From assembly GCF_012272835.1 (NCBI RefSeq), contig NZ_JAAWWK010000001.1:372001-436000 (forward strand): 64,000 nucleotides of DNA. The letters run 5' to 3'. The translations under genes were made by a program, and so were the position numbers. The notes beneath the pieces are model-generated. The model saw only the letters and a program-made list of their open reading frames with translations. It made no database searches and was not told the DNA's origin. This DNA is from Spongiibacter thalassae (GTDB lineage: Bacteria > Pseudomonadota > Gammaproteobacteria > Pseudomonadales > Spongiibacteraceae). The first letter of the stretch is position 1, and every line of letters starts with the position of its first letter. Shown piece after piece: positions 7,340-49,382 of this stretch.

Positions 7340-7369
7340 TTGACAAGCCCTGTGTCGGCAAAGTATCTT
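7340..7369 (+). promoter_or_regulatory. sigma-70-like promoter of the LuxR gene
   Basis: TTGACA at 7340-7345 and TATCTT at 7364-7369 are separated by 18 bp. The predicted start point near 7376 would leave a short leader before ATG 7408. The -10 hexamer overlaps the palindrome at 7367-7378, so binding there would be expected to block transcription. Confidence 0.45.
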
Positions 7370-7378
7370 GCTTGCTAA
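7367..7378. promoter_or_regulatory. recurrent 12-bp palindrome, copy 1 (CTTGCTTGCTAA)
   Basis: Matches the window-wide consensus TTCGCWWGCTAA at 10 of 12 positions. It lies in the TetR/LuxR divergent region, over the putative -10 of the LuxR gene. Confidence 0.4.
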
Positions 7379-7407
7379 TGGTTCGCGAGATAAATAAAAA
7401 TATCGCT

Positions 7408-8127
7408 ATGTACCAACTCACTGCTGATCAGCACTTAAGTGCCCAGGAAATCATGGCGCGCTCCGGCGCCAATAACTTCTGCCTGTTCCTGTTCTCTGCC
7501 CACCCTGAGCGCGCAGGGGTGCGGTTTATCTGTAATTATGGCATGAGTCGACCCGTTGCCCAGGGCTACACTCGGAGCTTGTGGCGCCAGGACCCCTTTC
7601 TGCACTGCCAACGTTGGCCGACGGACAAACCGACTCCCCTGCTGTTAGAACGGGGTCAGCTAGAAACAAAGAACGACCCCCACAGCGCCTATTGGCATTT
7701 TATCAACGGGGTTGGCTACCGGGACATTATTGCGGCGATCCACCCCTTCAGCGCCGATACCTTCCTGGTGGGAGGGCTGATGCGCCAGGAAGGCGATGGC
7801 CCATGTCGTCGCATTGTATCCGACGATACGCTTGACGCGATGAACACCTTCACCGCAGCCGCGGCCAACGCCATTATGGCAAATTGGCTGTCGCCATTGA
7901 TTTGCACAACACCGGAGAAGGATAATGGGGACAGACCCCCGGCGCTGACACCTCGGGAACAACAGGTGGTGAATGCACTGGCGAGGGGGTACAGTAATAA
8001 GCAAATCGCAGCGCAGTTATCCCTGTCTGAATACACCATTGAAAATCACTTTAAACGACTGTTTAAAAAATTCGGGGTGAATAACCGTACCGCTTTGTTA
8101 TCGGCGACGGGCGTGATCGCGCTGTGA
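7408..8127 (+). CDS. LuxR family transcriptional regulator (solo)
   Basis: 239 residues from ATG 7408. The C-terminal third is a GerE/LuxR HTH: LTPREQQVVNALARGYSNKQIAAQLSLSEYTIENHFKRLFKKFGV. The N-terminal half resembles an autoinducer-binding-like domain (SLWRQDPFL). The start was chosen because MYQLTADQHL aligns with MHLTAAQEF at the start of the second LuxR protein (42300). Upstream in-frame starts at 7324 and 7378 lack a ribosome site and lie in the promoter. No luxI-type gene is in the window. The linker before the HTH (7927-7939) is encoded by the same 13-mer that is repeated at 52019-52057, an odd insertion. Target genes unknown. Confidence 0.87.
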   Translation: MYQLTADQHLSAQEIMARSGANNFCLFLFSAHPERAGVRFICNYGMSRPVAQGYTRSLWRQDPFLHCQRWPTDKPTPLLLERGQLETKNDPHSAYWHFINGVGYRDIIAAIHPFSADTFLVGGLMRQEGDGPCRRIVSDDTLDAMNTFTAAAANAIMANWLSPLICTTPEKDNGDRPPALTPREQQVVNALARGYSNKQIAAQLSLSEYTIENHFKRLFKKFGVNNRTALLSATGVIAL

Positions 8128-8163
8128 AGTGTTAGTTCATGTCGTTTTACAGGAGTACGCCCA

Positions 8164-8598
8164 TTGTCCGATCACACACAGTCTGCGCTTGCTATCCCCG
8201 AAGGCTTCCGCCCCATCCGCTCTGGCTCGCCCTTTGATGAGCGTTTTGGCGGCGTGTATTGCAAGGAAGATGGAAACCGGTTTTTGTTGGGCTTTCGTGT
8301 TCAGCCCCACCACCTGAATGACGGTGGCACCTTGCACGGTGGCGTAATGGCGACCCTGGCCGACTGGCAACTGGAAGGAGTCAGGCCACAGCTGGGTATT
8401 TCCGCCGAGGTGATTACGCCGACGATAAGTCTTTCGGTGGAGTATCTTGCCCCCTCCACGGTGGGCACCTGGCTGGAGTGTCGGGCAGAGTTGCAAAAGC
8501 GCACCGGCCGTATGGCCTTCACTCGGGCCGAGCTCTATGCCGATGAGACATTGGTGGCGAGATCGTCGGCGATCTATCATCTGCCTCGAGGCGCCTGA
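8164..8598 (+). CDS. PaaI/YdiI-type hotdog-fold acyl-CoA thioesterase
   Basis: 144 residues with a TTG start at 8164; AGGAG lies at 8151-8155. The hotdog signature NDGGTLHGGVMATLAD (about residues 48-63) and the SVEYLAPSTVGTWLECRAEL strand segment place it in the PaaI thioesterase group, which hydrolyses acyl- or aryl-CoA esters and can rescue trapped CoA. It lies 36 bp after the LuxR gene in the same direction and could be co-transcribed with it. Substrate cannot be read from sequence. Confidence 0.87.
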   Translation: MSDHTQSALAIPEGFRPIRSGSPFDERFGGVYCKEDGNRFLLGFRVQPHHLNDGGTLHGGVMATLADWQLEGVRPQLGISAEVITPTISLSVEYLAPSTVGTWLECRAELQKRTGRMAFTRAELYADETLVARSSAIYHLPRGA

Positions 8599-8611
8599 AT
8601 TACAATACATA

Positions 8612-8623
8612 TTAGCTTGCGAA
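8612..8623. promoter_or_regulatory. recurrent 12-bp palindrome, copy 2 (TTAGCTTGCGAA)
   Basis: A near-perfect dyad (TTAGC and GCGAA half-sites around TT) in the 112-bp gap between the thioesterase gene and the membrane protein gene at 8711. It matches the consensus of the other copies in half-site sequence and spacing. Confidence 0.45.
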
Positions 8624-8710
8624 CGGAAATTATAAGAGATATTGTGGTGCTGGCCGCGCGCTGGTAATAGCGTCGGTGTTGGTGAAATTGATAACAATAT
8701 TGGAGACACC

Positions 8711-9064
8711 ATGACCGCACAGAATATCAAACATATAATTTTCGTTATCCTGGGTATTGCCGCACTGATACTCACTTGGCCCCACGCTTTTGACTGGATG
8801 CGCAATGGCGGGAATATTCTCGACCCGCTGTCTTTCTTTACCGATGCCATCGACGCGGGCGAGACGGCGGCCTTTCTCAGTCTGGATATGATGATTGCCT
8901 GGGTAGTGTTTATGATCTGGGTGGTGTTCGATACTGCCAGGATAGGCATGGGCATGAAATGGGGTTGGTTCTTTGTGGCCCTGTCGTATATTGGTGTGTC
9001 CTTCACCTTTCCTGTCTATCTCGTGGTGCGTGAGCGTTATATCGACCGGCATCGCACCGAGTAA
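8711..9064 (+). CDS. DUF2834-like small membrane protein
   Basis: 117 residues from ATG 8711 (GGAGACACC just upstream). Three hydrophobic segments are visible: about residues 8-25, 55-73 and 85-104, with a basic C-terminal tail (RERYIDRHRTE). The pattern of an N-terminal TM, a loop with FFTDAIDAGETAAFLSLDM and two more TMs matches the DUF2834 family of unknown function. An upstream in-frame start at 8642 would add residues without a ribosome site. It stands alone, followed by a hairpin. Confidence 0.72.
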   Translation: MTAQNIKHIIFVILGIAALILTWPHAFDWMRNGGNILDPLSFFTDAIDAGETAAFLSLDMMIAWVVFMIWVVFDTARIGMGMKWGWFFVALSYIGVSFTFPVYLVVRERYIDRHRTE

Positions 9065-9071
9065 ATCAGCA

Positions 9072-9094
9072 GGGCGGCGGTGCTAATGCCGCCC
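9072..9094 (+). terminator. hairpin after the DUF2834-like gene
   Basis: GGGCGGC (9072-9078) pairs with GCCGCCC (9088-9094) across a 9-nt loop and is followed by TTTCCT, a weak T-run. It lies directly after the stop at 9064. Confidence 0.55.
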
Positions 9095-9157
9095 TTTCCT
9101 CCTGTCACTGCCCGTTTTCGTGAATTGATACTGCCCCGATAGACTGAAATTGGTCTA

Positions 9158-9186
9158 TTGCCTCAAGTAGTTCGCTTGCTAATACT
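9158..9186 (+). promoter_or_regulatory. promoter with embedded 12-bp palindrome (copy 3)
   Basis: TTGCCT (9158-9163), a 17-bp spacer and AATACT (9181-9186) form a sigma-70-like promoter. The palindrome TTCGCTTGCTAA occupies 9171-9182, the spacer and first bases of the -10. This is the clearest case of the motif placed where a repressor would block RNA polymerase. It serves the three-gene operon starting at 9226. Confidence 0.55.
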
Positions 9187-9225
9187 GTTGCCCATAACGA
9201 TTTAAATAACAGGGAGCAGCCAATC

Positions 9226-10167
9226 ATGAAGCGAAAATACACCACAGATATTAAAGCCCTTGACCCAATACACGACAATCGTCATCAGTTGGGCAGCGGT
9301 CCGCTTGCGCGGGAGTCTCTTGCGTATGTACTGCAGCTGCCCGAGGAGGGCATTGCCGGGATTATCTACACCTGGGTGAATGGCGAAGGCAAGGCCGGCT
9401 GTGCCGTGACTCTGTACGGGCCAGGGGTGGGGCCGGAACCTCTGGTAGATATGCTTGACGGAGTGGCGGTGCCCGCTGATATGGACTTTTACGACTGGCG
9501 GGTTGAGCGTTTGCAGCTGCGTATTGGCGAGTTACTGGACACCGCGCATATTCAATATCAGTCGGAACACTTCGAAATCGATTATCACTTTACCGCCGCC
9601 CAACCCGCCTACGCTTATAGCTCTCACGCGGGAGGCTGTCCCCAGTGGATTGCCCACGATCGCTTTGAACAGCAGGGCACTCAGTCCGGTTGGATTCGTT
9701 TTAATGGCCGCGAGATTCCCCTGCGCGGCTATACCCAGCGCGATCACTCATGGGGCACTCGTGACTGGGGTGTCAATCAGCATTGGAAGTGGATACACGC
9801 TCAGGCCGGGCCGGAACTCAGTGTGCATTTCTGGAAACTGGAGTCGATGGGACAGACGCTGACCCGTGGCTATGTCGATAAAAACGGCCATATCGCTCAG
9901 GTGGTGAATGTGGATATCGAATTTGCCATGAATGAGGATATGACTACGCGCTCTGTAAACGCCGATATACGGGATTCGGCGGGGCGGCTTACGCGCTTTC
10001 AGGGCATCCCCTACGCGACGTTCTACCTCAGCCCCGACCCGATGATAACCCTGTTTGAATCGCCGATTACCGCCCACATCGACGGGGTTCCCGGCGGCGG
10101 CTGCTGCGAGGTGATGTGGACCAACAGCCTGATCGAATACGTGAAAGCCAAGCGGGAGGCGGCGTGA
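9226..10167 (+). CDS. DUF7064/CrtC-like beta-barrel domain protein
   Basis: 313 residues with no catalytic family I can name securely. The RDHSWGTRDWG segment (about residues 172-182) and the surrounding FNGREIPLRGYTQ and HWKWIHAQ strands resemble the lipocalin-like barrel of hydroxyneurosporene-synthase relatives now split into DUF7064/7065. Such proteins occur in fatty-acid and terpenoid degradation clusters but lack an assigned reaction. The TGA overlaps the ATG of the phosphotransferase gene by one base, so the products are probably made together. A ribosome site AGGGAG precedes the ATG. Confidence 0.65.
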   Translation: MKRKYTTDIKALDPIHDNRHQLGSGPLARESLAYVLQLPEEGIAGIIYTWVNGEGKAGCAVTLYGPGVGPEPLVDMLDGVAVPADMDFYDWRVERLQLRIGELLDTAHIQYQSEHFEIDYHFTAAQPAYAYSSHAGGCPQWIAHDRFEQQGTQSGWIRFNGREIPLRGYTQRDHSWGTRDWGVNQHWKWIHAQAGPELSVHFWKLESMGQTLTRGYVDKNGHIAQVVNVDIEFAMNEDMTTRSVNADIRDSAGRLTRFQGIPYATFYLSPDPMITLFESPITAHIDGVPGGGCCEVMWTNSLIEYVKAKREAA

Positions 10168-11324
10168 TGACAACACTATCGGTTGCTTCAAACTATGTGG
10201 CGGGCCGCGATATCGAACCCGGCGTGGTCGCGATGCTTGAACAGGCTGCTCGCAACAAGGGCGAGCCGGCGTACCGCTCGGTGACAGCGGCGGAAATGGG
10301 GCCAAAACTGGAGGCATTTCTCGCCCGTAACGGGGTAGCGCAGCCCAGGGTAGAGGGGCTACGCCGTATGGGCGGCGGCGCATCAAAAGAGCAGTTTGTT
10401 TTCGATTTGCACGCGGCAGGCCAGCCGACCCAACGCTGTGTGCTGCGTATGGACCCGTTGGAAAGCGCCGTCGTCTCCGACCGCCGCAAGGAGGTCAGTG
10501 TGTTGCGACGGATGGAGTCCGTGCTGCCGGTGCCGCCGGCCCTGTGGGCTGATGTCGACGGCAGCGAGTTGGGCCGCCCGGCCCTTATTGCCGGGTTTAT
10601 TGGTGGTGTGACGAAGCCCTCGGGGGACAGCGGCAATGTCTCCGGTCTCGGCACCCTGGTGCCGGAAGCCTTTCGCGAGAAATTGTCGGCGCAATTCATC
10701 GACTATCTGGCGGCGATGCACGGGGTGCCGGTGGATTTCGACCCCGAAGTATTTCATGTGCCCGATGCCGACCCTAAGCAGGCCGCCAGGTGGCAAGTTA
10801 ACTGGTGGAGCAGTGTGTGGCGCGATGACGCCATTGAAGGCAGTCCGCTAATGGGGCTGGCCGAGCGGTGGCTTCGGGATCATTTGCCCGACACCGATGA
10901 GCTGGTGGTAGTTCACGCGGATTTTCGTACCGGCAATTATCTGTTCGATGAAGACAGCCAGGAAATTACTACCATTCTCGACTGGGAACTGGCCCATATC
11001 GGTGACTATCACGAGGATCTTGCCTGGATAATCTGCCACAAAGGTGTCACTGCCGAGGGAGAGATCATGGCTTCGGGCCTGCTCACCCCGGAGCAGCTGT
11101 GCGACTGCTACCACCGTGCTACCGGACGGCGGGTCAACCCCGCCCATCTGCATTTTTACAAGGTGCTGAGCGTGTACAAGTGTGTGGCGATTTGTCTGGC
11201 GACCTCCGCGCAAACAGCAAAGCGTCAGCACAGCCATCAGGACATTCTGCTGAGCTGGCTGACCGCCGCCGGGCACGCCTTTTCCGACGAATTACTCTCG
11301 CTGCTGGAGGAGTCTCCCCTATGA
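10167..11324 (+). CDS. phosphotransferase family protein (APH/ACAD10-like kinase)
   Basis: 385 residues from the ATG in TGATG, overlapping the previous stop. It has a protein-kinase-like fold of the aminoglycoside phosphotransferase superfamily: glycine-rich loop RRMGGGASKEQFVF (about 69-82), catalytic loop VVHADFRTGNYLF (about 248-260) and metal-binding TTILDWELAHIGD (about 268-280). Bacterial relatives next to acyl-CoA genes phosphorylate the hydroxyl of hydroxyacyl-CoAs, as LvaA does in levulinate catabolism. It overlaps the next gene by 4 bp (ATGA). The small-partner arrangement supports a hydroxyacyl-CoA kinase, though the substrate is inferred. Confidence 0.86.
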   Translation: MTTLSVASNYVAGRDIEPGVVAMLEQAARNKGEPAYRSVTAAEMGPKLEAFLARNGVAQPRVEGLRRMGGGASKEQFVFDLHAAGQPTQRCVLRMDPLESAVVSDRRKEVSVLRRMESVLPVPPALWADVDGSELGRPALIAGFIGGVTKPSGDSGNVSGLGTLVPEAFREKLSAQFIDYLAAMHGVPVDFDPEVFHVPDADPKQAARWQVNWWSSVWRDDAIEGSPLMGLAERWLRDHLPDTDELVVVHADFRTGNYLFDEDSQEITTILDWELAHIGDYHEDLAWIICHKGVTAEGEIMASGLLTPEQLCDCYHRATGRRVNPAHLHFYKVLSVYKCVAICLATSAQTAKRQHSHQDILLSWLTAAGHAFSDELLSLLEESPL

Positions 11325-11833
11325 ATCCATCACAATCCCTGCGTGTATCCACAATGATGCGTGCACTACAGGACAGTATTATGCCCGCCATCGGCGACGA
11401 TCAGCCACTGGCCAGGGAGCAGGCTGGCCTGCTGCTGGGGCATCTTGCCGCGCTGCAGCAGCAGGACGGTCAGGAGAAGGCCGTCGACAATTATTGCGAT
11501 ACGCTGCTGGAGAATCTGTGTGAGTCGCTGCTGGCTTTGAGTCGCAACGAGCAGGATGCAGAGGTCCGCGCACTGCGTGAACAACTGGAATCGGCCTGTG
11601 GTGATGGCGATCTGCATGCTGCTGGTTTTTACTGCGAGCGGCTGTTGGCACTGACCGATGTTAGCGACGATTTTAAAACACAGAGCGCGGTAGCACTGTA
11701 CCGCTATGCCAAGGCGCATACGCAAATGGGGCGAGCCTGGTGTTTGCCGATGGGCTTTGACAGCAATGCCGGGGAATTACCCGCTGTGGGTGATATTCTG
11801 AAAGCAGGGGCGAAGGCCAACGAGCTGAGCTGA
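11321..11833 (+). CDS. hypothetical protein coupled to the phosphotransferase (possible LvaB-like partner)
   Basis: 170 residues from the ATG that overlaps the kinase stop as ATGA; the preceding CTGGAGGAG gives a ribosome site. The protein is helical and polar with no signal peptide or TM segment; segments such as MMRALQDSIMPAIGDD and QAGLLLGHLAALQQQ suggest a small helical bundle. I do not recognise a domain with certainty. In levulinate operons the kinase LvaA needs a small co-encoded protein LvaB, and this gene sits in the equivalent place, but it is longer and the link is by context only. Confidence 0.7.
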   Translation: MNPSQSLRVSTMMRALQDSIMPAIGDDQPLAREQAGLLLGHLAALQQQDGQEKAVDNYCDTLLENLCESLLALSRNEQDAEVRALREQLESACGDGDLHAAGFYCERLLALTDVSDDFKTQSAVALYRYAKAHTQMGRAWCLPMGFDSNAGELPAVGDILKAGAKANELS

Positions 11834-11859
11834 GGCCGGGAAATGTGGCAGGGGAAAGA

Positions 11860-11885
11860 GCGCACCGGCAGCTTTGCCGGTGCGC
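11860..11885. terminator. strong hairpin between convergent operons
   Basis: GCGCACCGGCA (11860-11870) and TGCCGGTGCGC (11875-11885) form a perfect 11-bp stem with a GCTT loop, between the stops of the plus-strand operon (11833) and the minus-strand thiolase (11894). No clear T-run flanks it on the plus side; a CTTT stretch flanks it on the minus side. A shared bidirectional terminator is likely. Confidence 0.6.
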
Positions 11886-11893
11886 CAGGAGGC

Positions 11894-13126: not shown

Positions 13127-13222
13127 AGTTAAAGTGCCTCTTCCGGTTCATTAATAATTGCGGTGGCGCGGCAAGGTTTGTGCCCGCCAACGCGTGGTGT
13201 TTTGTGTGCGTTACTGGGCTGG

Positions 13223-14794: not shown

Positions 14795-14809
14795 GGTGTC
14801 GATCCTCTT

Positions 14810-15601: not shown

Positions 15602-15642
15602 AACTGTTTTTTAACCCCTTTTTATTGGATAGCTCCGCGCCT

Positions 15643-16524: not shown

Positions 16525-16603
16525 CCGGGACTCCCGTCGAATAGGTTTGTGCTTATCAGTTATAGGCCTGATGCTTGAACTGGGTCAGTCGCCAGGCGCC
16601 AAT

Positions 16604-16647
16604 TTAGTACTAATATTAATAGTACGCGTACGAATAAAGTTCGTAAA
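16604..16647 (-). promoter_or_regulatory. promoter with stacked palindromes for the 16524-11894 operon
   Basis: On the minus strand TTTACG (16647-16642), a 17-bp spacer and TACTAT (16624-16619) form a sigma-70-like promoter. Three dyads crowd it: TTAGTACTAA (16604-16613), GTACGCGTAC (16622-16631), and TACGAA with TTCGTA (16629-16645, 5-nt gap). The concentration suggests operator sites. Confidence 0.45.
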
Positions 16648-16761
16648 CCTATTTTATTGCCCTTCTATCCATTCATCGAAAAATTTTTATTTTCAGGCCC
16701 GTCGGCGCAGGCGGTGAGCGGCGTGCGTGCCGCCCCATCCGTGTTGAACTGATGAAAAGAG

Positions 16762-17231: not shown

Positions 17232-17350
17232 ATAAAATAAGAAGGACGCCGATGAGGCGGGGGCAGGGTGGTAGGACTACGGTCGTTTTATAGTCGGTTT
17301 TAGCAGGTCGTTGCCCTATTGAGCATTGTGATAATTATAAATCTGGATGC

Positions 17351-17379
17351 TTGACATAAAAGGTTCGCATACTTAAGAT
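17351..17379 (+). promoter_or_regulatory. promoter with embedded palindrome-like motif (copy 6)
   Basis: TTGACA (17351-17356), a 17-bp spacer and TAAGAT (17374-17379). TTCGCATACTTA at 17364-17375 sits in the spacer, in the same position relative to the -10 as copy 3 at 9171. It drives the ferredoxin-reductase, aldehyde dehydrogenase and alcohol dehydrogenase operon. Confidence 0.55.
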
Positions 17380-21322: not shown

Positions 21323-21361
21323 TTGACAAAAACGTTCGCACATGAATAAATAGCAAGCATA
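21323..21361 (+). promoter_or_regulatory. TonB-receptor promoter with two palindrome-like copies (7 and 8)
   Basis: TTGACA (21323-21328), a 17-bp spacer and ATAAAT (21346-21351). TTCGCACATGAA (21335-21346) occupies the spacer as at 9171 and 17364, and a second copy, ATAGCAAGCATA (21350-21361), overlaps the -10 and start point. The same ATAGCAAGCATA occurs at 40433-40444. Confidence 0.52.
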
Positions 21362-27742: not shown

Positions 27743-27783
27743 ATAGCTAGCGAACTTTACTTTTGCAAACGAATAGCTATACT
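27743..27783 (+). promoter_or_regulatory. promoter with two palindrome-like copies (9 and 10)
   Basis: TTTACT (27756-27761), a 16-bp spacer and TATACT (27778-27783). ATAGCTAGCGAA (27743-27754) lies just upstream of the -35 and TTTGCAAACGAA (27762-27773) fills the spacer. A half-site GTTCGCTAA also lies immediately before the ATG at 27892. Serves the FadB-like gene. Confidence 0.5.
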
Positions 27784-40228: not shown

Positions 40229-40417
40229 TGTTAGTATCCATTAATATTCTATAGCGTAGTAATTTCTACGAATGCCCCGAGACTGTCAACGATAACTGTC
40301 CGGACAAGGATTCGCCCTGTGCGATAGTATGGGTTATCGTGCAAATATCGGGCCTAGTGCTGGTTTTAGCGGGCCTTCGGCCGAGATGATGAAATTTATG
40401 ATGGGTTGTGATAATAA

Positions 40418-40429
40418 TAAGCAAGCGAA
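40418..40429. promoter_or_regulatory. recurrent 12-bp palindrome, copy 11 (TAAGCAAGCGAA)
   Basis: On the minus strand this reads TTCGCTTGCTTA, identical to copy 4 at 16762. It starts 15 bp before the next copy at 40433, i.e. about one and a half helical turns. Confidence 0.5.
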
Positions 40430-40432
40430 ATA

Positions 40433-40444
40433 ATAGCAAGCATA
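40433..40444. promoter_or_regulatory. recurrent 12-bp palindrome, copy 12 (ATAGCAAGCATA)
   Basis: Identical to copy 8 at 21350-21361 and immediately upstream of the -35 at 40445. Confidence 0.45.
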
Positions 40445-40474
40445 TTGTGCGTATGCTAAATCTGTGTCTATAAT
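40445..40474 (+). promoter_or_regulatory. promoter of the badH/badI-like pair
   Basis: TTGTGC (40445-40450), 18-bp spacer, TATAAT (40469-40474). The perfect -10 hexamer compensates for a poor -35. Two palindromes abut it upstream. Confidence 0.5.
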
Positions 40475-40591
40475 GATTTCCGACAGGGTGGCCCATAGTC
40501 GTAAAGGGGTGCTCGATAGATTAACCACTCTGATATTGCCGCCCTCCGGTGGCGGTCATATTGGACTCAAATTGCAGCAGAGAGGTGTATT

Positions 40592-41362
40592 TTGAAAGGC
40601 TTGACGGGAAAGGTCGCAATAGTAACCGGCGGTGGCAGTGGTATTGGCGAGGCCATCGTGCTGCGTTTGGCAGAAGAGGGCTGCAAGGTCGCCCTGTTTG
40701 ATATCAATAGTGACGCCGCTGCAGCGGTTGCCGAGAAGTCAAGGGCGGCTGGTGCCGCTGGCTCGGTGTCGCCTTACGTTGCCGATATCACTAACCTGGA
40801 AGCGGTCGAAGCGGCGGTGGAAAAGGTGGAGTCTGAATTGGGGCCGGTGTGGATGCTGGTGAACAATGCCGGTTGGGATCAGCCCGCGCCCTTCCTCAGT
40901 ACCGGCCCCGAGCTGTGGCAGAAAATCGTTAACCTGAATTTATTTGGTCCTATTAACCTGCACGCTGCGGTGTGCAAACGTATGGCAGAGCGAAACGAGG
41001 GACGCGTTGTTAATGTGGCGTCGGATGCCGGTCGTGTCGGCACCAGCAACGAGGCGGTTTACTCGGCCTGTAAAGGTGGCACGATTGCCTTCAGCAAGTC
41101 GATGGCGCGGGAATTGGCGCGAAATAATATTCTGGTGAACGCCGTGTGCCCCGGGCCAACGGATACTCCCGCTATGGCGGCGGTTGCTGGCACCGGGCCG
41201 GAAGCGGAAAAATGGAAGCAGTCGATGGCGCGGGGAATTCCGTTGCGCCGTATGGCCCAGCCCGAGGACTACCCAGGAATGATCGCCTTTCTCGGCAGCG
41301 ACGATGCCGGGTATATCACCGGGCAAGCGATTTCGATTTCCGGTGGGCTGACAATGAGCTGA
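40592..41362 (+). CDS. badH: SDR dehydrogenase, 2-hydroxycyclohexanecarboxyl-CoA dehydrogenase (BadH)-like
   Basis: 256 residues with a TTG start at 40592; GCAGAGAGG lies upstream. Classical SDR: VTGGGSGIGEAI (about 11-22), NNAGWDQPAPF (about 91-101), catalytic Ser in VASDAGR and YSACK with Tyr and Lys (about 155-159). The C-terminal GYITGQAISISGGLTMS is close to BadH of Rhodopseudomonas as I remember it. BadH oxidises 2-hydroxycyclohexanecarboxyl-CoA to the 2-keto form, the substrate of BadI encoded next. The pairing with a BadI-type gene is the main support for the symbol. Confidence 0.75.
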   Translation: MKGLTGKVAIVTGGGSGIGEAIVLRLAEEGCKVALFDINSDAAAAVAEKSRAAGAAGSVSPYVADITNLEAVEAAVEKVESELGPVWMLVNNAGWDQPAPFLSTGPELWQKIVNLNLFGPINLHAAVCKRMAERNEGRVVNVASDAGRVGTSNEAVYSACKGGTIAFSKSMARELARNNILVNAVCPGPTDTPAMAAVAGTGPEAEKWKQSMARGIPLRRMAQPEDYPGMIAFLGSDDAGYITGQAISISGGLTMS

Positions 41363-41413
41363 GGCTCATTGCACTCTGAATAAACATCACTAGCAGCAGG
41401 TAAGGACAGGATT

Positions 41414-42208
41414 ATGTTTGCTTCTACCCCCTATGAAGACATTATCTACGAAAACCGCAATGGCGCGGCCTGGATTATCATCAACCGACCCAAGGTGTAC
41501 AACGCCTTTCGCGGCAAAACCATCGAGGAATTGATTCACGCTTTTCTGACCGCCGCGAGCGACAAGGAAGTGGGTGTGGTGGTATTGACCGGTGCCGGCG
41601 ACAAGGCGTTTTGTACCGGCGGTGACCAGTCCAACCACGACGGTGACTATGATGGTCGCGGTGTTGTGGGGCTGCCGATTGACGAACTGCAGTCGGCGAT
41701 TCGCGACATTCCCAAACCGGTTATCGCGGCGGTGAATGGTTTTGCGATTGGTGGCGGCAACGTGCTGGCGACAATCTGTGATCTGACCATTGCCGCCGAC
41801 ACAGCGCAAATGGGCCAGGTGGGGCCGAAGGTCGGCTCTGTAGACGCAGGCTGGGGCACCGCCTATCTTGCGCGCATTGTCGGCGAGAAAAAGGCTCGTG
41901 AAATCTGGTATATGTGCAAGCGTTATACCGCCCAGGAAATGGCTGATATGGGCTTGGTGAACAAAGTCGTGCCCGCCGCTGAATTGGAGGCCGAGGTCAC
42001 CAGCTGGTGCGAAACCATGTTGCAGCACAGCCCCACCGCCATGGCTCTGGCCAAACGCTCCTTTAACTGCGATACCGAGTCTATTCGCGGCACCAGCATG
42101 ATGGCGCTGAATGCGGTGAAAATGTATTACGACACGGCAGAGTCGAAAGAGGGCGTGAACGCCTTCAATGAAAAGCGCAAGCCGGATTTCAGAAAGTTTA
42201 TTGACTGA
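41414..42208 (+). CDS. badI: 2-ketocyclohexanecarboxyl-CoA hydrolase (BadI)-like crotonase
   Basis: 264 residues. Segments FCTGGDQSNHDGDYDGRG, AIRDIPKPVIAAVNG, IGGGNVLATICDLTIAAD, MGQVGPKVGSVDAGWGTAYLARIVGEKKAREIWYMCKRY and the C-terminal EKRKPDFRKFI closely follow BadI from memory. MenB (naphthoate synthase) is a sister with similar motifs, but the GGDQ loop and lack of any menaquinone genes favour BadI. BadI opens the ring of 2-ketocyclohexanecarboxyl-CoA to pimelyl-CoA by a reverse Dieckmann reaction. With the SDR 51 bp upstream it forms an alicyclic ring-opening module. Confidence 0.82.
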   Translation: MFASTPYEDIIYENRNGAAWIIINRPKVYNAFRGKTIEELIHAFLTAASDKEVGVVVLTGAGDKAFCTGGDQSNHDGDYDGRGVVGLPIDELQSAIRDIPKPVIAAVNGFAIGGGNVLATICDLTIAADTAQMGQVGPKVGSVDAGWGTAYLARIVGEKKAREIWYMCKRYTAQEMADMGLVNKVVPAAELEAEVTSWCETMLQHSPTAMALAKRSFNCDTESIRGTSMMALNAVKMYYDTAESKEGVNAFNEKRKPDFRKFID

Positions 42209-42231
42209 TCGCCGACGCGCGCGCGGCTAAG

Positions 42232-42263
42232 GCAGCCCCTGTGCAAATGGATGCAGGGGCTGC
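42232..42263 (+). terminator. hairpin after the badI-like gene
   Basis: GCAGCCCCTG (42232-42241) pairs perfectly with CAGGGGCTGC (42254-42263), 12-nt loop; no T-run follows. It lies 23 bp after the stop and just before the LuxR gene, so it may attenuate read-through. Confidence 0.5.
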
Positions 42264-42299
42264 AACATAATAATTATCCAGTCTGCGGGAGGTTTGCCC

Positions 42300-43043
42300 A
42301 TGCACCTGACAGCAGCGCAGGAATTTCACGAGCTGAATACCCGCTATGGTGGCGAAGTCGCCAGTGCAAGCCGAGCCTCCGGTCTGGCGCTGATGCTGTA
42401 CGACACCTCCGCCGCCTCTCCGGCAATACACTTTCTGCACAACAGCGGCATCCCCGAGTCGGTAGTGACCTCTTACTCGTCCCAATGGTTTACCTGTGAC
42501 CCCTTGTTGCCTGATGCCGGTTGCCACGACGAAGTGATGCGCCATAGTTCTATCGTGGCCCCGGCCAATAGTGTTGCCGAGACGAACGAGGTGTATTTTT
42601 CCCGCCTGGGCCGGGCGGGCTTTGTCGAGGCCGCGGCATTGTCGCGCCCCCTGGGGCGCAGTTTTCATCTGGTGGTGGGCTTGTTGGCCCACCGCCAACA
42701 ATTTCGCGGCAGTCTGTCGGTAGATAGCGTTACTGGTCAGGTGGATCAATGGCTGGCTCAGGGCAGTGACTATCTTGTCGATGCCTGTTTGCATATCGCA
42801 CTGTATCGCCCGGCGGCGCCCCCCGCCGCGCCTGTTGCGCCAGTATCGATGACCCGCCGGGAGCAGCAATTGGTCAACGAGCTGCTGCGGGGGAGTAGTA
42901 ATAAGCAGATCGCCGCTGACCTCCATTTGTCGATTTACACCATTGAAAACTACCTCAGCCGCTTGTATCGCAAGTTTGCTGTGCACAGCCGTACGGCCCT
43001 GCTTGCGGCGCTGCGCCAGTCAGCGGCGGCGCGCGGAGGGTAA
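42300..43043 (+). CDS. LuxR family transcriptional regulator (second solo)
   Basis: 247 residues from ATG 42300, with GCGGGAGG 7 bp upstream. C-terminal GerE HTH: MTRREQQLVNELLRGSSNKQIAADLHLSIYTIENYLSRLYRKFAV. The N-terminal domain has SSQWFTCDPLLPDAG, reminiscent of autoinducer-binding domains but without a nearby luxI. Clearly paralogous to the protein at 7408 (shared N-terminal LTA-Q and near-identical HTH recognition helix). It lies between the badHI-like pair and a TonB receptor gene, a natural place for a pathway-specific activator. Confidence 0.87.
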   Translation: MHLTAAQEFHELNTRYGGEVASASRASGLALMLYDTSAASPAIHFLHNSGIPESVVTSYSSQWFTCDPLLPDAGCHDEVMRHSSIVAPANSVAETNEVYFSRLGRAGFVEAAALSRPLGRSFHLVVGLLAHRQQFRGSLSVDSVTGQVDQWLAQGSDYLVDACLHIALYRPAAPPAAPVAPVSMTRREQQLVNELLRGSSNKQIAADLHLSIYTIENYLSRLYRKFAVHSRTALLAALRQSAAARGG

Positions 43044-43101
43044 GTTCGAGTCGCTGGTCTCGCATTGTTAAGTAGTAGGCGTAAAAAACGTAAACGAAAG
43101 A

Positions 43102-43113
43102 ATCGCAAGCAAA
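43102..43113. promoter_or_regulatory. recurrent 12-bp palindrome, copy 13 (ATCGCAAGCAAA)
   Basis: On the minus strand TTTGCTTGCGAT. It lies 64 bp upstream of the TonB-receptor ATG, as do copies 7 and 8 for the other receptor. A GATAAC -10-like hexamer follows at 43124. Confidence 0.42.
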
Positions 43114-43176
43114 CAAAAAATCTGATAACTTGGATTGGCGTGTTCTTATAGCCATAACAATCAAAAAGGAATCAGT

Positions 43177-45282: not shown

Positions 45283-45289
45283 CCACTCC

Positions 45290-45311
45290 CGGGGCCTGTC
45301 AATAGGCCCCG
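45290..45311 (+). terminator. hairpin after the second TonB-receptor gene
   Basis: CGGGGCCT (45290-45297) pairs with AGGCCCCG (45304-45311) over a 6-nt loop, 8 bp past the stop; no T-run. Confidence 0.55.
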
Positions 45312-45340
45312 ATATGCGCCTTCATGCATGTTGATTCGCC

Positions 45341-45443
45341 TATAACATGGCCGCACTACATCCTCAACGCCGTGTTTTGGGGCGCCGGAGCGTCAGCGGA
45401 GGCGTCCCAGCAGCACACGTCCCTCACGACAAAATTGTTATGT
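45341..45443 (-). repeat. attC-like recombination site 1 (left end of cassette array)
   Basis: On the minus strand the site begins CATAACAA (45442-45435), contains an imperfect stem (CGTGT..GGGGCGCC against GGCGTCCC..ACACG) and ends in GTTATA (45346-45341). It overlaps the 3' end of the cassette gene at 45438, the usual relation between a cassette gene and its attC. Longer and less regular than the other sites. Confidence 0.5.
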
Positions 45444-45884
45444 TAATTTTTCCGCCTCCCGCGTTCTTGCATTTTTTATCGATGCTATTCCAATCCCAAA
45501 GAATAGAGACAATATTAAAATTAAACCCAGTAGAGCATTAATAAATGATTCTCTTTCAGTAAACACAGGATACTCATCTACAATAAGCTCTTCCACACCG
45601 TTATTGAATACTCTTTGCTTCAAGCTTACGGTTCGGCCAACTTCCACAACCGACAACCTGCCGCAAGAGATAGAGCCAATTGAAAAACTCTTCGATTCTC
45701 CGTTATCGAGAGCAAGTGACATATCAAAATCATACCCATGCATTCTTTCTTTACAACTTACATCTACAACAACACCATTGAATGATTTTGTTTCACTTCT
45801 AAATATACTATTGAATAAATAGAGACATACGATTAACGCACCTATAGCTATAAAAACTCTTCCAATATCAATTTGAATTTTCAT
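45438..45884 (-). CDS. hypothetical membrane protein (cassette gene)
   Basis: 148 residues, AT-rich relative to the flanking chromosome. N-terminal TM (about 10-27), a beta-rich middle with paired Cys in SCKERMHGYDF and SISCGRLSVVEVG, and a second TM (about 113-132) before a basic tail. I do not recognise a family; the layout resembles small DUF3592-type membrane proteins but without a firm match. It is the leftmost ORF of the cassette array and is followed by an attC-like site. Confidence 0.62.
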   Translation of the reverse strand: MKIQIDIGRVFIAIGALIVCLYLFNSIFRSETKSFNGVVVDVSCKERMHGYDFDMSLALDNGESKSFSIGSISCGRLSVVEVGRTVSLKQRVFNNGVEELIVDEYPVFTERESFINALLGLILILSLFFGIGIASIKNARTREAEKLT

Positions 45885-45907
45885 CTCATATTTCGTTTAA
45901 TTCGGTT

Positions 45908-46012
45908 TGGTCTGCCCCACAAAAATTAGACACCATAACTAAGCTGCCAAAGCAGTCTCCTCAAACTCGATAGGACTGAGGTTGTCGTTAGCAGAGTGTC
46001 TCCTTTGAATAT
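45908..46012 (-). mobile_element. remnant of an IS3-family insertion sequence
   Basis: On the minus strand 46012-45939 encodes the tail IQRRHSANDNLSPIEFEETALAA and stop, the standard C-terminus of IS3-family OrfB (DDE integrase) transposases. It is followed by an IS-end-like TGTCTAATTTTTGTGGGGCA (45932-45913). Everything upstream of the RRHS motif is missing: the frame breaks near 46012, so only about 105 bp of the element remains. It lies between two cassettes. Confidence 0.8.
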
Positions 46013-46040
46013 CTTGACCTTGCTTGGTTAATACCGCACG

Positions 46041-46128
46041 CATAACGTCGACCGCACCGGCGAGCAAAGGCGACAGCCTTTGCGAGTCCAGCGCAGCTTA
46101 CTGCGCGAGGGTGCCGGCCCTTGTTAGA
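46041..46128 (-). repeat. attC-like recombination site 2
   Basis: Minus strand: CTAACAAGGGCCGGC (46128-46114) to GTTATG (46046-46041). Arms GGTGC and GCACC pair, and the middle holds GCGCAG/CTGCGC and AAAGGC/GCCTTT hairpins. It lies 3' of the gene at 46144, as expected for its cassette. Confidence 0.72.
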
Positions 46129-46143
46129 GAGACAATACACCTT

Positions 46144-46488
46144 CTATACTCGCCGCATAACTAGGTACCGGTTTTTAACACCCATACTCTTTGGTAGCGC
46201 AAACACTGCCAAAAGTAAAACCAAAATTCCAAGCCACGTGGCCACCTCGTTGTCCCAAAATTCAATAAACGAGTGAACCAGATAAAATGTAAGAATCATT
46301 AGCGCTGAGCGGACAAACAGTCCCGGCAAACGACAGCTGGGAGGATATTGAAGCTTCACACCACATCTTGGACATTCAAATACCGCGTCTGTGCGCCACT
46401 TGCTTGTCGTTTTCGCAGAATAATTCTCAAATTTTTTGTCACAGCATTCACATTGCAGGCCATGTATTGGCGGTGGAACGTAGACCAT
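46144..46488 (-). CDS. hypothetical zinc-ribbon membrane protein (cassette gene)
   Basis: 114 residues. Four Cys in two pairs, CECCDKKF (about 13-20) and CPRCGV (about 39-44), form a zinc-ribbon-like N-terminus, followed by two TM segments (about 59-76 and 85-103) and a basic tail. Function unknown. It lies between attC-like sites 2 and 3 on the same strand, so it is a complete cassette. No promoter is evident; cassette genes often depend on outside promoters. Confidence 0.65.
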   Translation of the reverse strand: MVYVPPPIHGLQCECCDKKFENYSAKTTSKWRTDAVFECPRCGVKLQYPPSCRLPGLFVRSALMILTFYLVHSFIEFWDNEVATWLGILVLLLAVFALPKSMGVKNRYLVMRRV

Positions 46489-46494
46489 GGCTCT

Positions 46495-46547
46495 CTAACG
46501 CCTCAATCAGCCGCCGCCGGAGGCGTCGGCTGCATTGACTTGTTATG
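46495..46547 (-). repeat. attC-like recombination site 3
   Basis: Minus strand: CATAACAAGTCAATGCAGCC (46547-46528) through to GGCGTTAG (46502-46495). The arms TCAATGCAGCCGACGCC and GGCGGCGGCTGATTGA are imperfectly complementary with unpaired extra bases, the classic attC design. The preceding cassette gene ends inside it, encoding the tail NKSMQPTPPAAAD, a C-terminus often seen when cassette genes run into attC. Confidence 0.85.
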
Positions 46548-47057
46548 TGCGCCTAAATTTTCTACCTGCATTTTCAACTCAGAAACGGCGCTTTCAACTC
46601 CTTGAATTTGACCATTTATGGATTTACGCTCTAGCTCGATAGTCGCTAAAACCTTATGCACTTGAAACTCATCTATTTGCGTAGGTCTTTCCAGTTGAAG
46701 TCTCGAAAAATATATAGATGCGCCTGTTGAAACGGTAGAAATTATTATTGCGATAGCAGCAAACAATGTTGCCTGAGTTGCAGATCGTCTTGCCTCAATC
46801 AGTTCTTCATACTCAAGTAAATTAAAGTAACCCTCGTGCTCAAGAAAAAATTCACCCTCGTTACGTAGCTGCCCAGGCTTGTTTCCTCTCGGAAGGCCTT
46901 TATCTACAAATAGGTCTGAAAAGAACTGCTCTGCAGCGAAATCATCAAATTCATAACCTTCGCTTTCAAGATGACTTTTCAACTCATCAAACGTGATTGG
47001 CTCACCTATTTTACTGCGGCCATATCTTAGAATTTCGATGTATACATCATGCTTCAT
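46503..47057 (-). CDS. hypothetical protein with TM and coiled-coil (cassette gene)
   Basis: 184 residues from ATG 47057 (MKHDVYIEILRYGRSKIGEP); a start at 47093 would overlap attC site 4. The N-terminal half is soluble and charged and recalls a winged-helix-like layout (FDELKSHLESEGYEF). One TM lies at about 96-118, followed by a helical, probably coiled-coil segment (ATIELERKSINGQIQGVESAVSELKMQVENL). The stop is inside attC site 3. No family recognised. Confidence 0.62.
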   Translation of the reverse strand: MKHDVYIEILRYGRSKIGEPITFDELKSHLESEGYEFDDFAAEQFFSDLFVDKGLPRGNKPGQLRNEGEFFLEHEGYFNLLEYEELIEARRSATQATLFAAIAIIISTVSTGASIYFSRLQLERPTQIDEFQVHKVLATIELERKSINGQIQGVESAVSELKMQVENLGAHNKSMQPTPPAAAD

Positions 47058-47079
47058 GCTTGAGAACCATTTGTTTTCA

Positions 47080-47146
47080 CATAACGCCGCCATAAATTGC
47101 CGCTTGAAGCGCAGCGTAAAGCGGTCAATTTGATGGCCTTGTTATG
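47080..47146 (-). repeat. attC-like recombination site 4
   Basis: Minus strand: CATAACAAGGCCATC (47146-47132) to GGCGTTATG (47088-47080). The inner arms GCCATCAAATTGACCGCTT and AAGCGGCAATTTATGGC pair with unpaired extrahelical bases, as in typical attC sites. It overlaps the 3' end of the gene at 47125. Confidence 0.85.
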
Positions 47147-47544
47147 AGCCAGTTGCTAATTGATGGCACGGTGTACCGTTTACTTTTAGCCAAGCTGCCT
47201 TGCGAACATATGTAATCTATAAATACGCCCATGGTGTGGCTTTTATTAATGTAGTAACCCAATGCCTCTGGTTGCTCTTGTGAAGGTGGAAGTTCAGTAA
47301 TGTGAACCATAAGCTCCTGACCTTCGGCATCAAGTAAGAATGTCCCGCTTCTTGATGCGGGACAGGAATCAATGTTCTTTGCTGGCCCTTTTAGCTGTAC
47401 TTGGGTAGAGAGACCTTCGAGTTTGGTTGCAACGGTAAAACCCAATTCATTTGCTGATGAATGAGTTAACTCCACAATTTCAGGGCCACCAGTAGCCAAT
47501 GCATGGGCCGAAAGAAATAACATTGATAGCGCAAAATTCTTCAT
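47125..47544 (-). CDS. hypothetical secreted protein (cassette gene)
   Basis: 139 residues with a likely signal peptide (MKNFALSMLFLSAHALA, cleavage near residue 17) and a mature domain with two Cys (CPASRSG and YICSQG) that could form a disulphide. No domain recognised. The stop lies within attC site 4. It is the rightmost cassette ORF seen; no attI site or integrase gene is found to its right. Confidence 0.62.
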   Translation of the reverse strand: MKNFALSMLFLSAHALATGGPEIVELTHSSANELGFTVATKLEGLSTQVQLKGPAKNIDSCPASRSGTFLLDAEGQELMVHITELPPSQEQPEALGYYINKSHTMGVFIDYICSQGSLAKSKRYTVPSISNWLITRPSN

Positions 47545-48053
47545 TCTTGGTAGCTCATAACTGTTTTATTATGAAGACAGGGGCCTTATATCACTGAGGC
47601 TCCTTATCTCGGGGGCTAAAATTGGAATGGAACCAGGAATCCTGAAGATTTCAAAGGCTTGGATGAATTTCGTCGAGTTAGTGATTGATGATAGCAAGAC
47701 CAGTTCCCTCTATCTGCTTTAGCTCCTTTTCCCCTGATCATATACCCACTCATATAAAAATCAATTAGTTAGCACCGGCAAAAAGGTGATAGTGAGCTCG
47801 TGGCTCCTGAAAAAGGGGAAAGTGCCGATTTGGGGCAGCTTTTTTAAGCTGAGTGGCTGTTTTCCCCGAAAGGACGCTGGTGACTGTCCGCTTCTGACCA
47901 GCAGCCGACCTGACTTGCGCCACTTGTGAAGTGATTTACCATATGCTGGCCGTTGCAGATATTTACCCTAAGATGGCCAAGGGGGCCAACTTAGGGGTGA
48001 ATCGACAAACAGGGCTTGTGCGAGGATTGTTTGGTTAGGTAGGAATAAGCAGG
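47545..48053. other. 509-bp stretch without a convincing gene
   Basis: No ORF with family character and no clear attC core is visible. Composition is lower in GC than the flanking catabolic genes, like the cassette array, so it may be cassette or flanking debris. It ends at a tandem heptamer repeat. Confidence 0.45.
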
Positions 48054-48115
48054 ACGCGAGACGCGAGACGCGAGACGCACGAACGCTGCACAGCGTCTCC
48101 CGTACAGCGTCTCCC
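48054..48115. repeat. tandem heptamer ACGCGAG and adjoining GCGTCTCCC repeats
   Basis: ACGCGAG is repeated three and a half times (48054-48078). Two copies of CAGCGTCTCCC follow (48091-48101 and 48105-48115), and GAGACGC can pair with GCGTCTC across the interval. It lies immediately after the stop of the minus-strand kinase-like gene (48118) and may act as its terminator as well as being a slippage-prone repeat. Confidence 0.6.
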
Positions 48116-48117
48116 AA

Positions 48118-49260
48118 TCAGAAACTATCCAGGGCGTCGGTATCGTCGATGGCGTGGGTCATGCGGCTGATAAACTCCAGGCTGGTGTCCCGGGGCTGCA
48201 TGTCTGGCACGTCTGGGTTGGGACTGAGCACGGGCGTCCACCAGGCCAGTGCGCCGAACAGGTTCTGGCGGTAGTAGGTCCAGGCGTCGTCGAAGGTGGT
48301 CTCCGCGCCGCCGCTGGCTTTTAATTCCGCGAGATAGTACTGGATCAGGTCTTTTTCCCAGGCGCGGCGATCGGCGGTGGTCAGGCTGGTTGAAATTACA
48401 TAGGCGAGGTCGCGCCCCCAGTGCCCGCGACACATGCACTGCCAGTCGCTCAGGCCCATATGCTGGTCGGCAGTGATATACCAGTTTTTCAGATGAACGT
48501 CGGAGTGCACTACCGTATGGGGCAAGGACTCGTGGCGGGCGACACTGGCGAGGGTGGCGGGCCAGATCTTATCGGCCTTCTTGAACAGTCGATCCGGTAT
48601 CACTGCCTGCGCTTCGCGGAAGCCGATGTCGGCCTGGGGGCCAAAGCCCGCCTCATTGGCGGTAATGGTAAAAAAATCGCTCCAGGTATTCAGATAAGAC
48701 AGTGAGCGGGTCAGTTCGGGGCTTTGATAATACTTGCCGTGAAGGGTGGCGAGGATGCTCAATTGCTCCTTGGCCTGCTGTTCTGAAATGGCAGTGCGAT
48801 GGTCGCTGAAGCTAACCTGGCCGGTCATATCATCCAGCAAAATAATCGAGTTCAGGGTGTCTGGGTTGAAGTTTGCGAACCGCGCGGTGGGCGCTTCGAT
48901 ATTCAGCTGTGGTCGCAATTCATTATAAAACCGGACTTCGGCCTCAATGGCGCCATTCATACCCAGTAGGCAGCGGCTGGGCAGGGTGAAGGTGGCTTTG
49001 GCAAACAAGCTGGAGGGGAGGTGGGTCGCGTCGCCGTCAAGCGTCAGTTCAATGCGCCGGCGACTGGAGGTGCCCTCATCTTCAGGCCCCAGGGTAAAGC
49101 CAGTAATGTCACCGTGTTGCTTGTCGCCCACGGTGTTGTTCAGCCATTCCAGGGTGATGTCTTCAAAGGCCAGGGGGATTTGCTCGCGCTGCTGAACCGG
49201 CGCGCGCCGGGCGACTTCCCGCTCGTAGGCCGCCTTGATCTGGTCGAAACTCAATTTCAT
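48118..49260 (-). CDS. phosphotransferase family protein (ecdysteroid-kinase/APH-like)
   Basis: 380 residues. Kinase-like fold with DEGTSSRRRIELTL (nucleotide loop, about 61-74), catalytic loop VVHSDVHLKNWYI (about 251-263) and GLSDWQCMCRGHWGRDLAYVI (about 269-289) with the metal-binding Asp. The pattern is closest to the CHK/EcKinase-like branch of APH proteins, distinct from the kinase at 10167. It faces away from an AtuA-type cluster across a shared control region with a 20-bp palindrome (49321-49340). It may phosphorylate a hydroxylated acyl or terpenoid compound; inferred only. Confidence 0.85.
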   Translation of the reverse strand: MKLSFDQIKAAYEREVARRAPVQQREQIPLAFEDITLEWLNNTVGDKQHGDITGFTLGPEDEGTSSRRRIELTLDGDATHLPSSLFAKATFTLPSRCLLGMNGAIEAEVRFYNELRPQLNIEAPTARFANFNPDTLNSIILLDDMTGQVSFSDHRTAISEQQAKEQLSILATLHGKYYQSPELTRSLSYLNTWSDFFTITANEAGFGPQADIGFREAQAVIPDRLFKKADKIWPATLASVARHESLPHTVVHSDVHLKNWYITADQHMGLSDWQCMCRGHWGRDLAYVISTSLTTADRRAWEKDLIQYYLAELKASGGAETTFDDAWTYYRQNLFGALAWWTPVLSPNPDVPDMQPRDTSLEFISRMTHAIDDTDALDSF

Positions 49261-49320
49261 ATTGTGACTCCTCTTTATTGTTTATAGGCGAAATATTAGC
49301 AGGATATTAAAGCCACCTCG

Positions 49321-49382
49321 ATAGACGGATACCCGTCTATTATAAACGATAGCTTGCTAACAATACGTATGGCTAGTATATT
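49321..49382. promoter_or_regulatory. divergent control region: 20-bp palindrome, motif copy 14 and promoter
   Basis: ATAGACGG (49321-49328) and CCGTCTAT (49333-49340) form a perfect dyad. ATAGCTTGCTAA (49349-49360) is a recurrent-motif copy that overlaps TTGCTA (49354-49359), a -35-like hexamer 17 bp from TATATT (49377-49382). This promoter faces the crotonase gene at 49423. Confidence 0.52.

What the first reader, a model, noticed from the sequence alone, without database searches (positions are those of the whole stretch)
7367..49360. Recurrent 12-bp imperfect palindrome suggests one undescribed catabolic regulon
Intergenic copies with the pattern TTCGCWWGCTAA (half-sites TTMGC and GCKAA, 2-bp centre) occur at 7367, 8612, 9171, 16762, 17220, 17364, 21335, 21350, 27743, 27762, 40418, 40433, 43102 and 49349. 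At 9171, 17364, 21335 and 27762 they lie in the 16-17-bp spacer between recognisable -35 and -10 hexamers, and others overlap or abut promoter elements. The genes served encode oxidoreductases, two TonB receptors, a hydroxyacyl-kinase-like set, a FadB-like protein and a BadHI-like pair. The size and symmetry fit a TetR-family operator, and the TetR gene at 6578-7213 has a copy in its own divergent region. I know of no published operator with this sequence.
Basis: partly seen in the sequence, partly recalled or inferred. Interest (0 to 1): 0.78.

Follow-up and report, generated by a model that had tools for sequence, protein, structure and literature searches.

The report
SlyA-type operator regulon for ring catabolism
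Genes of a marine bacterium that probably break down ring-shaped carbon compounds share a short DNA switch that matches the known binding site of SlyA/MarR repressors, and the likely switch protein is a SlyA-like gene just outside the stretch examined rather than the TetR gene first suspected.

Summary
The genome belongs to the Zhongshania group. Of the 14 sites, 11 have counterparts at the same promoters in relatives (some degenerate); 9171 is not conserved, and 8612 and 16762 could not be compared. Tandem sites 15 bp apart recur: 14 pairs, none in one shuffled copy. The operator is not undescribed: the published SlyA box TTAGCAAGCTAA scores 17.3 of a possible 17.4 under the refined matrix. 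The likely binder is a SlyA-like MarR gene 4 kb left of the window. Its close orthologues occur in the same 8 of 18 Zhongshania as TetR and the LuxR set. In another family its relative stands beside homologous genes, and that locus carries the same paired sites. The TetR assignment is not supported. A second, 18-bp palindrome (core GACGGAWWTCCGTC) accompanies the LuxR-type regulators. New member of a known kind; binding and repression are untested.

The parts
7367..7393 (.). tandem pair of dyads (7367-7378 and 7382-7393, 15 bp apart) before LuxR1
   Evidence: degenerate pair kept in G010 and G015; 17 of 24 columns identical; 7367 below 12.3 bits
17220..17231 (.). dyad in the SDR1/FNR divergent region, upstream copy
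   Evidence: 14.0 bits; counterparts in G010, G015, G014
17364..17375 (.). dyad between -35 TTGACA (17351-17356) and -10 TAAGAT (17374-17379) of FNR-AldDH-ADH
   Evidence: 13.9 bits; position; a site of 12.3 bits or more lies upstream of FNR in 8 of 8 carrier genomes
21335..21361 (.). tandem pair (21335, 21350; 15 bp) before TonB1; first dyad fills the -35/-10 spacer
   Evidence: 21350 13.1 bits, 21335 below 12.3
27743..27773 (.). pair of dyads (27743, 27762; 19 bp apart) around the -35 TTTACT of the FadB-like/ACAD2 genes
   Evidence: 22 of 24 columns identical in G000/G010/G015; similar block in G014
40418..40459 (.). two dyads (40418, 40433) and a weaker third (40448), 15 bp apart, before BadH-like/BadI-like/LuxR2
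   Evidence: 40433 ends at the base before TTGTGC 40445
43087..43113 (.). tandem pair (43087, 43102; 15 bp) before TonB2
   Evidence: 43102 14.1 bits; pair; pair also in G010 (42901/42916)
49349..49360 (.). dyad in the EcKL/ECH4 divergent region
   Evidence: 15.4 bits; site at the matching region of G010 (46437); only 5 columns could be aligned
6578..7213 (-). (The proposed binder, a SlyA-like MarR gene, lies outside the window at C1:367397-367912, that is 4.1-4.6 kb left of base 1, + strand; a second SlyA-like MarR lies at C1:356280-356822, - strand.)
   Evidence: Pfam TetR_N; orthologues of 64-83% in 7 of 17 congeners; not supported as binder. MarR genes:
7408..8127 (+). LuxR1 (GerE HTH); start inferred from relatives
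42294..43043 (+). LuxR2 (GerE HTH) after BadH-like/BadI-like
40592..42208 (+). BadH-like (40592-41362) and BadI-like (41414-42208) genes, central targets
   Evidence: best NCBIfam hits BadH 323.9 bits (cut-off 431.2) and BadI 449.8 (467.6)
9140..9157 (.). 18-bp palindrome, proposed LuxR box, just before the -35 of DUF7064
   Evidence: 3 mismatches to the consensus; related block in relatives
49322..49339 (.). 18-bp palindrome, proposed LuxR box, EcKL/ECH4

Best explanation
The dyad TTMGCWWGCKAA is a SlyA-type operator. A SlyA-like MarR-family dimer, most likely the protein encoded 4 kb left of the window (C1:367397-367912), binds it as a repressor and shuts the promoters of a ring-catabolism cluster: SDR1, FNR-AldDH-ADH, TonB1, FadB-like/acyl-CoA dehydrogenase, BadH-like/BadI-like/LuxR2, TonB2, EcKL/ECH4 and LuxR1. 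Bound in the -35/-10 spacer, against the -35, or just after the -10, it would exclude RNA polymerase. Tandem dyads 15 bp apart would hold two or three dimers. A pathway metabolite, by analogy with BadR a CoA thioester, would release it. Shown by sequence: the sites, their conservation, spacing and promoter positions, the match to the SlyA consensus, and the MarR gene's distribution and its linkage in G610. Inferred: binding, repression, effector, substrate, and which of two SlyA-like paralogues acts.
For: Conservation at orthologous promoters and at FNR in 8 of 8 carrier genomes. 15-bp tandem spacing: 14 pairs, 0 in one Markov copy. The SlyA consensus TTAGCAAGCTAA (PMC5797941) scores 17.3 of 17.4; 0 of 200,000 random 12-mers reach it. 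The MarR is nearest SlyA in NCBIfam and the PDB. Close MarR orthologues (66-81%) in the same 8 of 18 genomes as TetR and the LuxR set. In G610 (another family of the class) the 56% MarR sits among homologues of AMP ligase, ECH1, ACAD2, FadB-like, ACAD1 and BadI; the only two high-scoring 15-bp pairs of that 20 kb (sums 21.8 and 21.3, next -0.0) lie in the MarR/ACAD1 divergent region and the ACAD2 promoter.
Against: TetR, LuxR and MarR share one distribution in the genus, so co-occurrence does not decide. The MarR has no good site upstream in the own genome (best 9.2 bits) and weak ones in G010 and G015 (9.9 and 10.2); G011 has 17.1, while the 14-bit sites of G002, G016 and G017 lie 417-428 bp away, close to a divergent gene; G014 was not shown (script error). 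The BadH promoters of G002, G016 and G017 lack the dyad. G489 has a 53% MarR but only weak dyads (8.4, 9.4). G610 also has a 40% TetR relative on the same contig, 31 kb away. The MarR is below the SlyA equivalog cut-off. The exact pattern is not in excess genome-wide. The refined matrix was trained on many of the sites later counted.
Confidence: 0.72

Rival explanations
1. The window's TetR protein (6578-7213) binds the dyad and represses the same genes.
For: Same 8 of 18 genomes; its HTH stretch QGAQLHH is identical in all 8; a degenerate conserved pair lies in its divergent region in 3 genomes; G610 has a 40% relative. TetR operators with a 2-bp centre exist (KstR, recalled).
Against: The dyad is a SlyA-box match. 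No TetR gene of the 8 has a site of 12.3 bits or more upstream. No site near the G610 TetR relative. G489, with MarR and weak dyads, has no TetR match better than E 7e-5.
Confidence: 0.12
2. The LuxR-type paralogues bind the 12-bp dyad.
For: LuxR1 and LuxR2 lie behind promoters with sites, and a site lies in the LuxR3/TonB region in G000, G010 and G015; same distribution.
Against: A different 18-bp palindrome follows the LuxR genes, including in the Alteromonadaceae MAG whose genome shows no TetR match and whose LuxR locus has no dyad of 12.5 bits or more. Spacer positions suit a repressor. G610 has only HTH-level LuxR matches yet has the dyad pairs.
Confidence: 0.06
3. The binder is the second SlyA-like MarR (C1:356280-356822), or both paralogues share the sites.
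For: It is also SlyA-like (80 bits) and has a 14.8-bit dyad about 60 bp upstream.
Against: Relatives of 65-68% were seen only in G011 and G014, and the genus search for the first MarR lists only G000, G011 and G014 for this type, while sites occur in all 8 carriers.
Confidence: 0.08
4. Chance or compositional artefact of AT-rich promoters.
For: No excess of the degenerate pattern in the window; 9 against 9 control genome-wide.
Against:: held-out genomes, shuffled and reversed controls, spacing, conservation.
Confidence: 0.02

Closest known systems
SlyA box and SlyA/RovA branch of the MarR family (Salmonella, E. coli)
   Same: Operator: TTAGCAAGCTAA is an exact instance of TTMGCWWGCKAA. The proposed protein is nearest SlyA. 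SlyA can repress and is inhibited by small aromatic carboxylates (PMC6401476 passages).
   Different: Protein below the SlyA equivalog cut-off. Best-kept positions here are the inner GC (60 and 52 of 62), whereas mutational work on SlyA stressed TTA-N6-TAA. Targets are catabolic genes; sites come in 15-bp tandems.
BadR (MarR family; Rhodopseudomonas palustris, Aromatoleum sp. CIB)
   Same: MarR repressor of bad-ali genes including badHI, short dyad with 2-bp centre overlapping promoter elements; effector CHC-CoA (PMC9795900 abstract and passages).
   Different: Operator CAAT-nn-ATTG: 0 in the window; the CAA-N4-TTG form in 1 of 7 site-bearing intergenic regions. In the own genome the MarR is 45 kb from the BadHI-like pair; sequence kinship to BadR not tested.
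CymR and KstR (TetR-family repressors of p-cymene and steroid catabolism; recalled, no call)
   Same: Local repressors of catabolic clusters; KstR's operator also has a 2-bp centre.
   Different: Other half-sites; no evidence that the TetR here binds this dyad.

Membership tests
SlyA-type operator | 12-bp dyad close to TTAGCAAGCTAA | tested here: met
   17.3 of 17.4 under the matrix; consensus from PMC5797941 passages
SlyA-type operator | bound by a SlyA-family protein | not testable with these tools
   needs binding assay
SlyA (NCBIfam PRK03573 equivalog) | score at or above the curated cut-off | tested here: not met
   67.4 bits against 120; paralogue 80; G610 protein 64.5: SlyA-like, not SlyA
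MarR family | MarR wHTH domain above the Pfam gathering score | tested here: met
   PF12802 53.9 against 27, PF01047 49.4 against 24.6 for ORF L011:15268-15912
MarR family | autoregulatory site at its own promoter | tested here: inconclusive
   G610 pair in the divergent region, G011 17.1 bits; own genome 9.2
BadR | operator CAAT-nn-ATTG | tested here: not met
BadR | gene beside bad genes | tested here: inconclusive
   beside ACAD1 and 2.3 kb from the BadI-like gene in G610; 45 kb from the pair in the own genome
TetR operator of 6578-7213 | sites linked to the TetR gene across genomes | tested here: not met
   0 of 8 with 12.3 bits or more upstream; degenerate pair in 3; none at the G610 relative

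The most novel reading that the evidence does not exclude
A two-layer catabolic circuit: one SlyA-like repressor, reading tandem SlyA boxes at a fixed 15-bp spacing, controls the enzymes, the uptake receptors and all three paralogous LuxR-type regulators, which act through their own 18-bp box (core GACGGAWWTCCGTC) that accompanies LuxR/TonB-receptor loci from Zhongshania to sphingomonads and Hydrocarboniphaga and for which no description was found.
Probability: 0.5. Interest if true: 0.55.

Novelty: new member of a known kind. Interest (0 to 1): 0.42.

Why it matters
It places a SlyA-type operator, best known from enterobacterial virulence regulation, in the role of a dedicated catabolic switch beside genes resembling those for alicyclic or p-menthane-type compounds. 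It gives a list of target promoters and a likely sensor protein that can be tested directly, and it redirects the experiment: deleting the TetR gene would probably miss the regulator.

Tried and rejected
Degenerate pattern counting in the window showed no excess. LysR (26775) as binder: seen in the fetched clusters of G000, G010 and G015 but not of G014, where the FadB-promoter block remains. BadR operator: absent. Co-occurrence across the genus does not separate TetR, LuxR and MarR. TetR relatives of 25-37%: of nine loci scanned, only two had a 12-mer of 12 bits or more (L173 12.9; L038 12.9 and 12.1), not followed further. Literature: (degenerate motif strings) found no paper, (Zhongshania with other terms) nothing useful, one search found six papers with the exact SlyA string; only PMC9795900, PMC5797941 and PMC6401476 were opened (abstract or passages).

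Mishaps: one search used a pattern one base too long for the 18-bp palindrome, so its result says nothing. One search printed wrong TetR frames; one search replaced them, but its row G000_2 came from the wrong strand and was not used (alignment A1, uses the right frame). Searches stopped with script errors after part of their output. One search did not pick up the G610 and G489 MarR rows. In one search the two controls are the same test.
Full report
What was checked. The 14 sequences exist at the stated places. Exact matches to TTMGCWWGCKAA in the window number two against 0.06 expected; TTMGCNNGCKAA with up to two mismatches is not enriched (78 found, 89 expected). In the 4.40-Mb genome the near-exact pattern TWMGCWWGCKWA has 9 places, as many as its read-backwards control, but 4 of the 9 fall in this 64-kb window (p 5e-6).

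Held-out test. At 13 bits it gave 28 intergenic and 20 coding hits where 11.7% of the sequence is intergenic by a simple ORF caller: 10.6-fold density, p 1e-14. Markov-shuffled intergenic DNA gave 4.95 on average (maximum 8 in 20 runs) and reversed intergenic DNA 1. At 12 bits the figures are 36 and 32 (shuffled 11.25, reversed 4), at 14 bits 16 and 14 (2.3, 0). In 11 other stretches of the own genome, 212 kb in all, three of them chosen around exact hits, there were 6 hits at 13 bits against 9 in the 64-kb window. The relatives' stretches were chosen around the cluster, so this tests intergenic preference, not genome-wide excess.

Conservation. Orthologous promoters were aligned. Sites have counterparts at SDR1/FNR, TonB1, FadB-like, BadH-like, TonB2 and TetR/LuxR1, and partly at EcKL/ECH4. 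Over 12 sites, columns are identical in 106 of 137 cases and other promoter columns in 628 of 1460 (Fisher p 5e-15). The DUF7064 site (9171), left out of the pool, has 5 of 12; 8612 and 16762 were not tested. Alignments of noncoding DNA are imperfect. The region upstream of FNR carries at least one site of 12.3 bits or more in 8 of 8 carrier genomes. The BadH promoter carries sites in G000, G010, G015, G014 and G011 but not in G002, G016 and G017. G010 and G015 have a site before the thiolase gene, which this genome lacks. On contig C9 of the own genome a site lies in the LuxR3/TonB divergent region, with sites in the same region of G010 and G015.

Anatomy. Dyads lie in the -35/-10 spacer (21335, 27762, and 17364 with a small overlap of the -10), abut the -35 (40433), or follow the -10 (BadH promoter of G014 and G011). 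Dyads of 8.5 bits or more are most often 15 bp apart: 14 pairs, triples counted as two, in the 13 stretches and G610; next are 19 and 30 bp with 5 each. One Markov copy of the 13 stretches (0.94 Mb) gave none at 15 bp. The matrix had been trained on several of these sites. The positions are those of a repressor (inference).

Which protein. TetR, LuxR paralogues and a MarR are found as close orthologues in the same 8 Zhongshania genomes, so distribution cannot decide. The MarR gene lies outside the window, at C1:367397-367912. Three results favour it. First, the published SlyA consensus is an exact instance of the motif and scores 17.3 of 17.4, and the MarR is nearest SlyA in NCBIfam and the PDB, though below the SlyA cut-off. 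Second, in G610, one of 3 genomes besides the own among 369 of the class that matched the MarR query, the 56% MarR stands among homologues of AMP ligase, ECH1, ACAD2, FadB-like, ACAD1 and BadI, and the only two high-scoring 15-bp pairs of the 20 kb lie in the MarR/ACAD1 divergent region and the ACAD2 promoter. Third, the 3.6 kb around G610's TetR relative have no site above 2.9 bits, and none of the 8 Zhongshania TetR genes has a site of 12.3 bits or more upstream. Against: no good site before the MarR in the own genome; G489, with a 53% MarR, shows only dyads of 8.4 and 9.4 bits; and a second SlyA-like MarR (C1:356280-356822) has a 14.8-bit site beside it.

LuxR and the second palindrome. TAGACGGAWWTCCGTCTA with at most 3 mismatches occurs 10 times in the 13 fetched Zhongshania stretches, 10 of 10 intergenic, and its reversed control 0 times: at EcKL (6 genomes), LuxR3/TonB (2), DUF7064 (1) and one further place in G002. 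The LuxR3/TonB copy aligns, with variation, in all 8 Zhongshania and in the Alteromonadaceae MAG locus L114, whose genome gave no TetR match (completeness not stated). Cores with at most one mismatch occur in 6 of 29 loci of LuxR relatives examined (L114, L123, L124, L125, L127, L130); L132, L134 and L137, also matched over most of the protein, have none. In L125 and L127 copies lie about 65-75 bp before a TonB-receptor gene. At 9140 the palindrome lies just before the -35 of DUF7064, as for an activator (inference). Exact-string searches for four forms of the core found one paper, unrelated by its title and abstract.

Function. NCBIfam's best hits for 40592-41362 and 41414-42208 are BadH (323.9 bits, cut-off 431.2) and BadI (449.8, cut-off 467.6). 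With FNR-AldDH-ADH, TonB receptors and acyl-CoA enzymes and, to the left, an extradiol/Rieske/DmpE/DmpG set, this fits alicyclic or p-menthane-type ring catabolism; the substrate is inferred and the comparison with p-cymene and limonene pathways is recalled. Organism: the search left the own record out; several congeners' contigs have the lengths of records titled Zhongshania, among them Z. aliphaticivorans and Z. marina.

Literature seen. PMC9795900: abstract and passages. PMC5797941: passages. PMC6401476: passages. All others only as search listings. KstR, CymR and the E. coli MarR consensus are recalled.

Noticed in passing
window 9140-9157 and 49322-49339; C9:403239; L114 5792; L123 10853; L124 10128; L125 10122; L127 9196; L130 6214: A second palindrome, core GACGGAWWTCCGTC, accompanies LuxR-type regulator/TonB-receptor loci in Zhongshania, an Alteromonadaceae MAG, Hydrocarboniphaga and sphingomonads: probably a LuxR-type box for which no description was found.
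   Followed up: partly
window 7408-8127, 42294-43043; C9:403388-404095: Three LuxR-type paralogues in the own genome; LuxR1 and LuxR2 are only 41-51% identical to their counterparts in G010 and G015 although ECH3 and ACAD2 nearby are 92-96%. Each LuxR gene lies at or behind a promoter region with the dyad.
   Followed up: partly
L066, L067, L065: BadH promoter of G002, G017, G016: These promoters lack the 12-bp dyad but share a wider inverted repeat TTTGCAT-N9-ATGCGAA, perhaps the same half-sites one helical turn further apart.
   Followed up: no
3.7 kb left of the window to window 6552: Operon with extradiol dioxygenase, SDR, Rieske components, hydrolase, DmpG, class II aldolase, DmpE and acyl-CoA synthetase genes next to TetR, resembling a p-cumate (cmt) pathway (resemblance recalled); the TetR may serve this operon.
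   Followed up: no
window 8137-9006: ORF without a Pfam or NCBIfam match, in a segment absent between LuxR1 and DUF7064 in G010; its first 99 residues match a place in the G015 cluster at 73%.
   Followed up: no
   Followed up: partly
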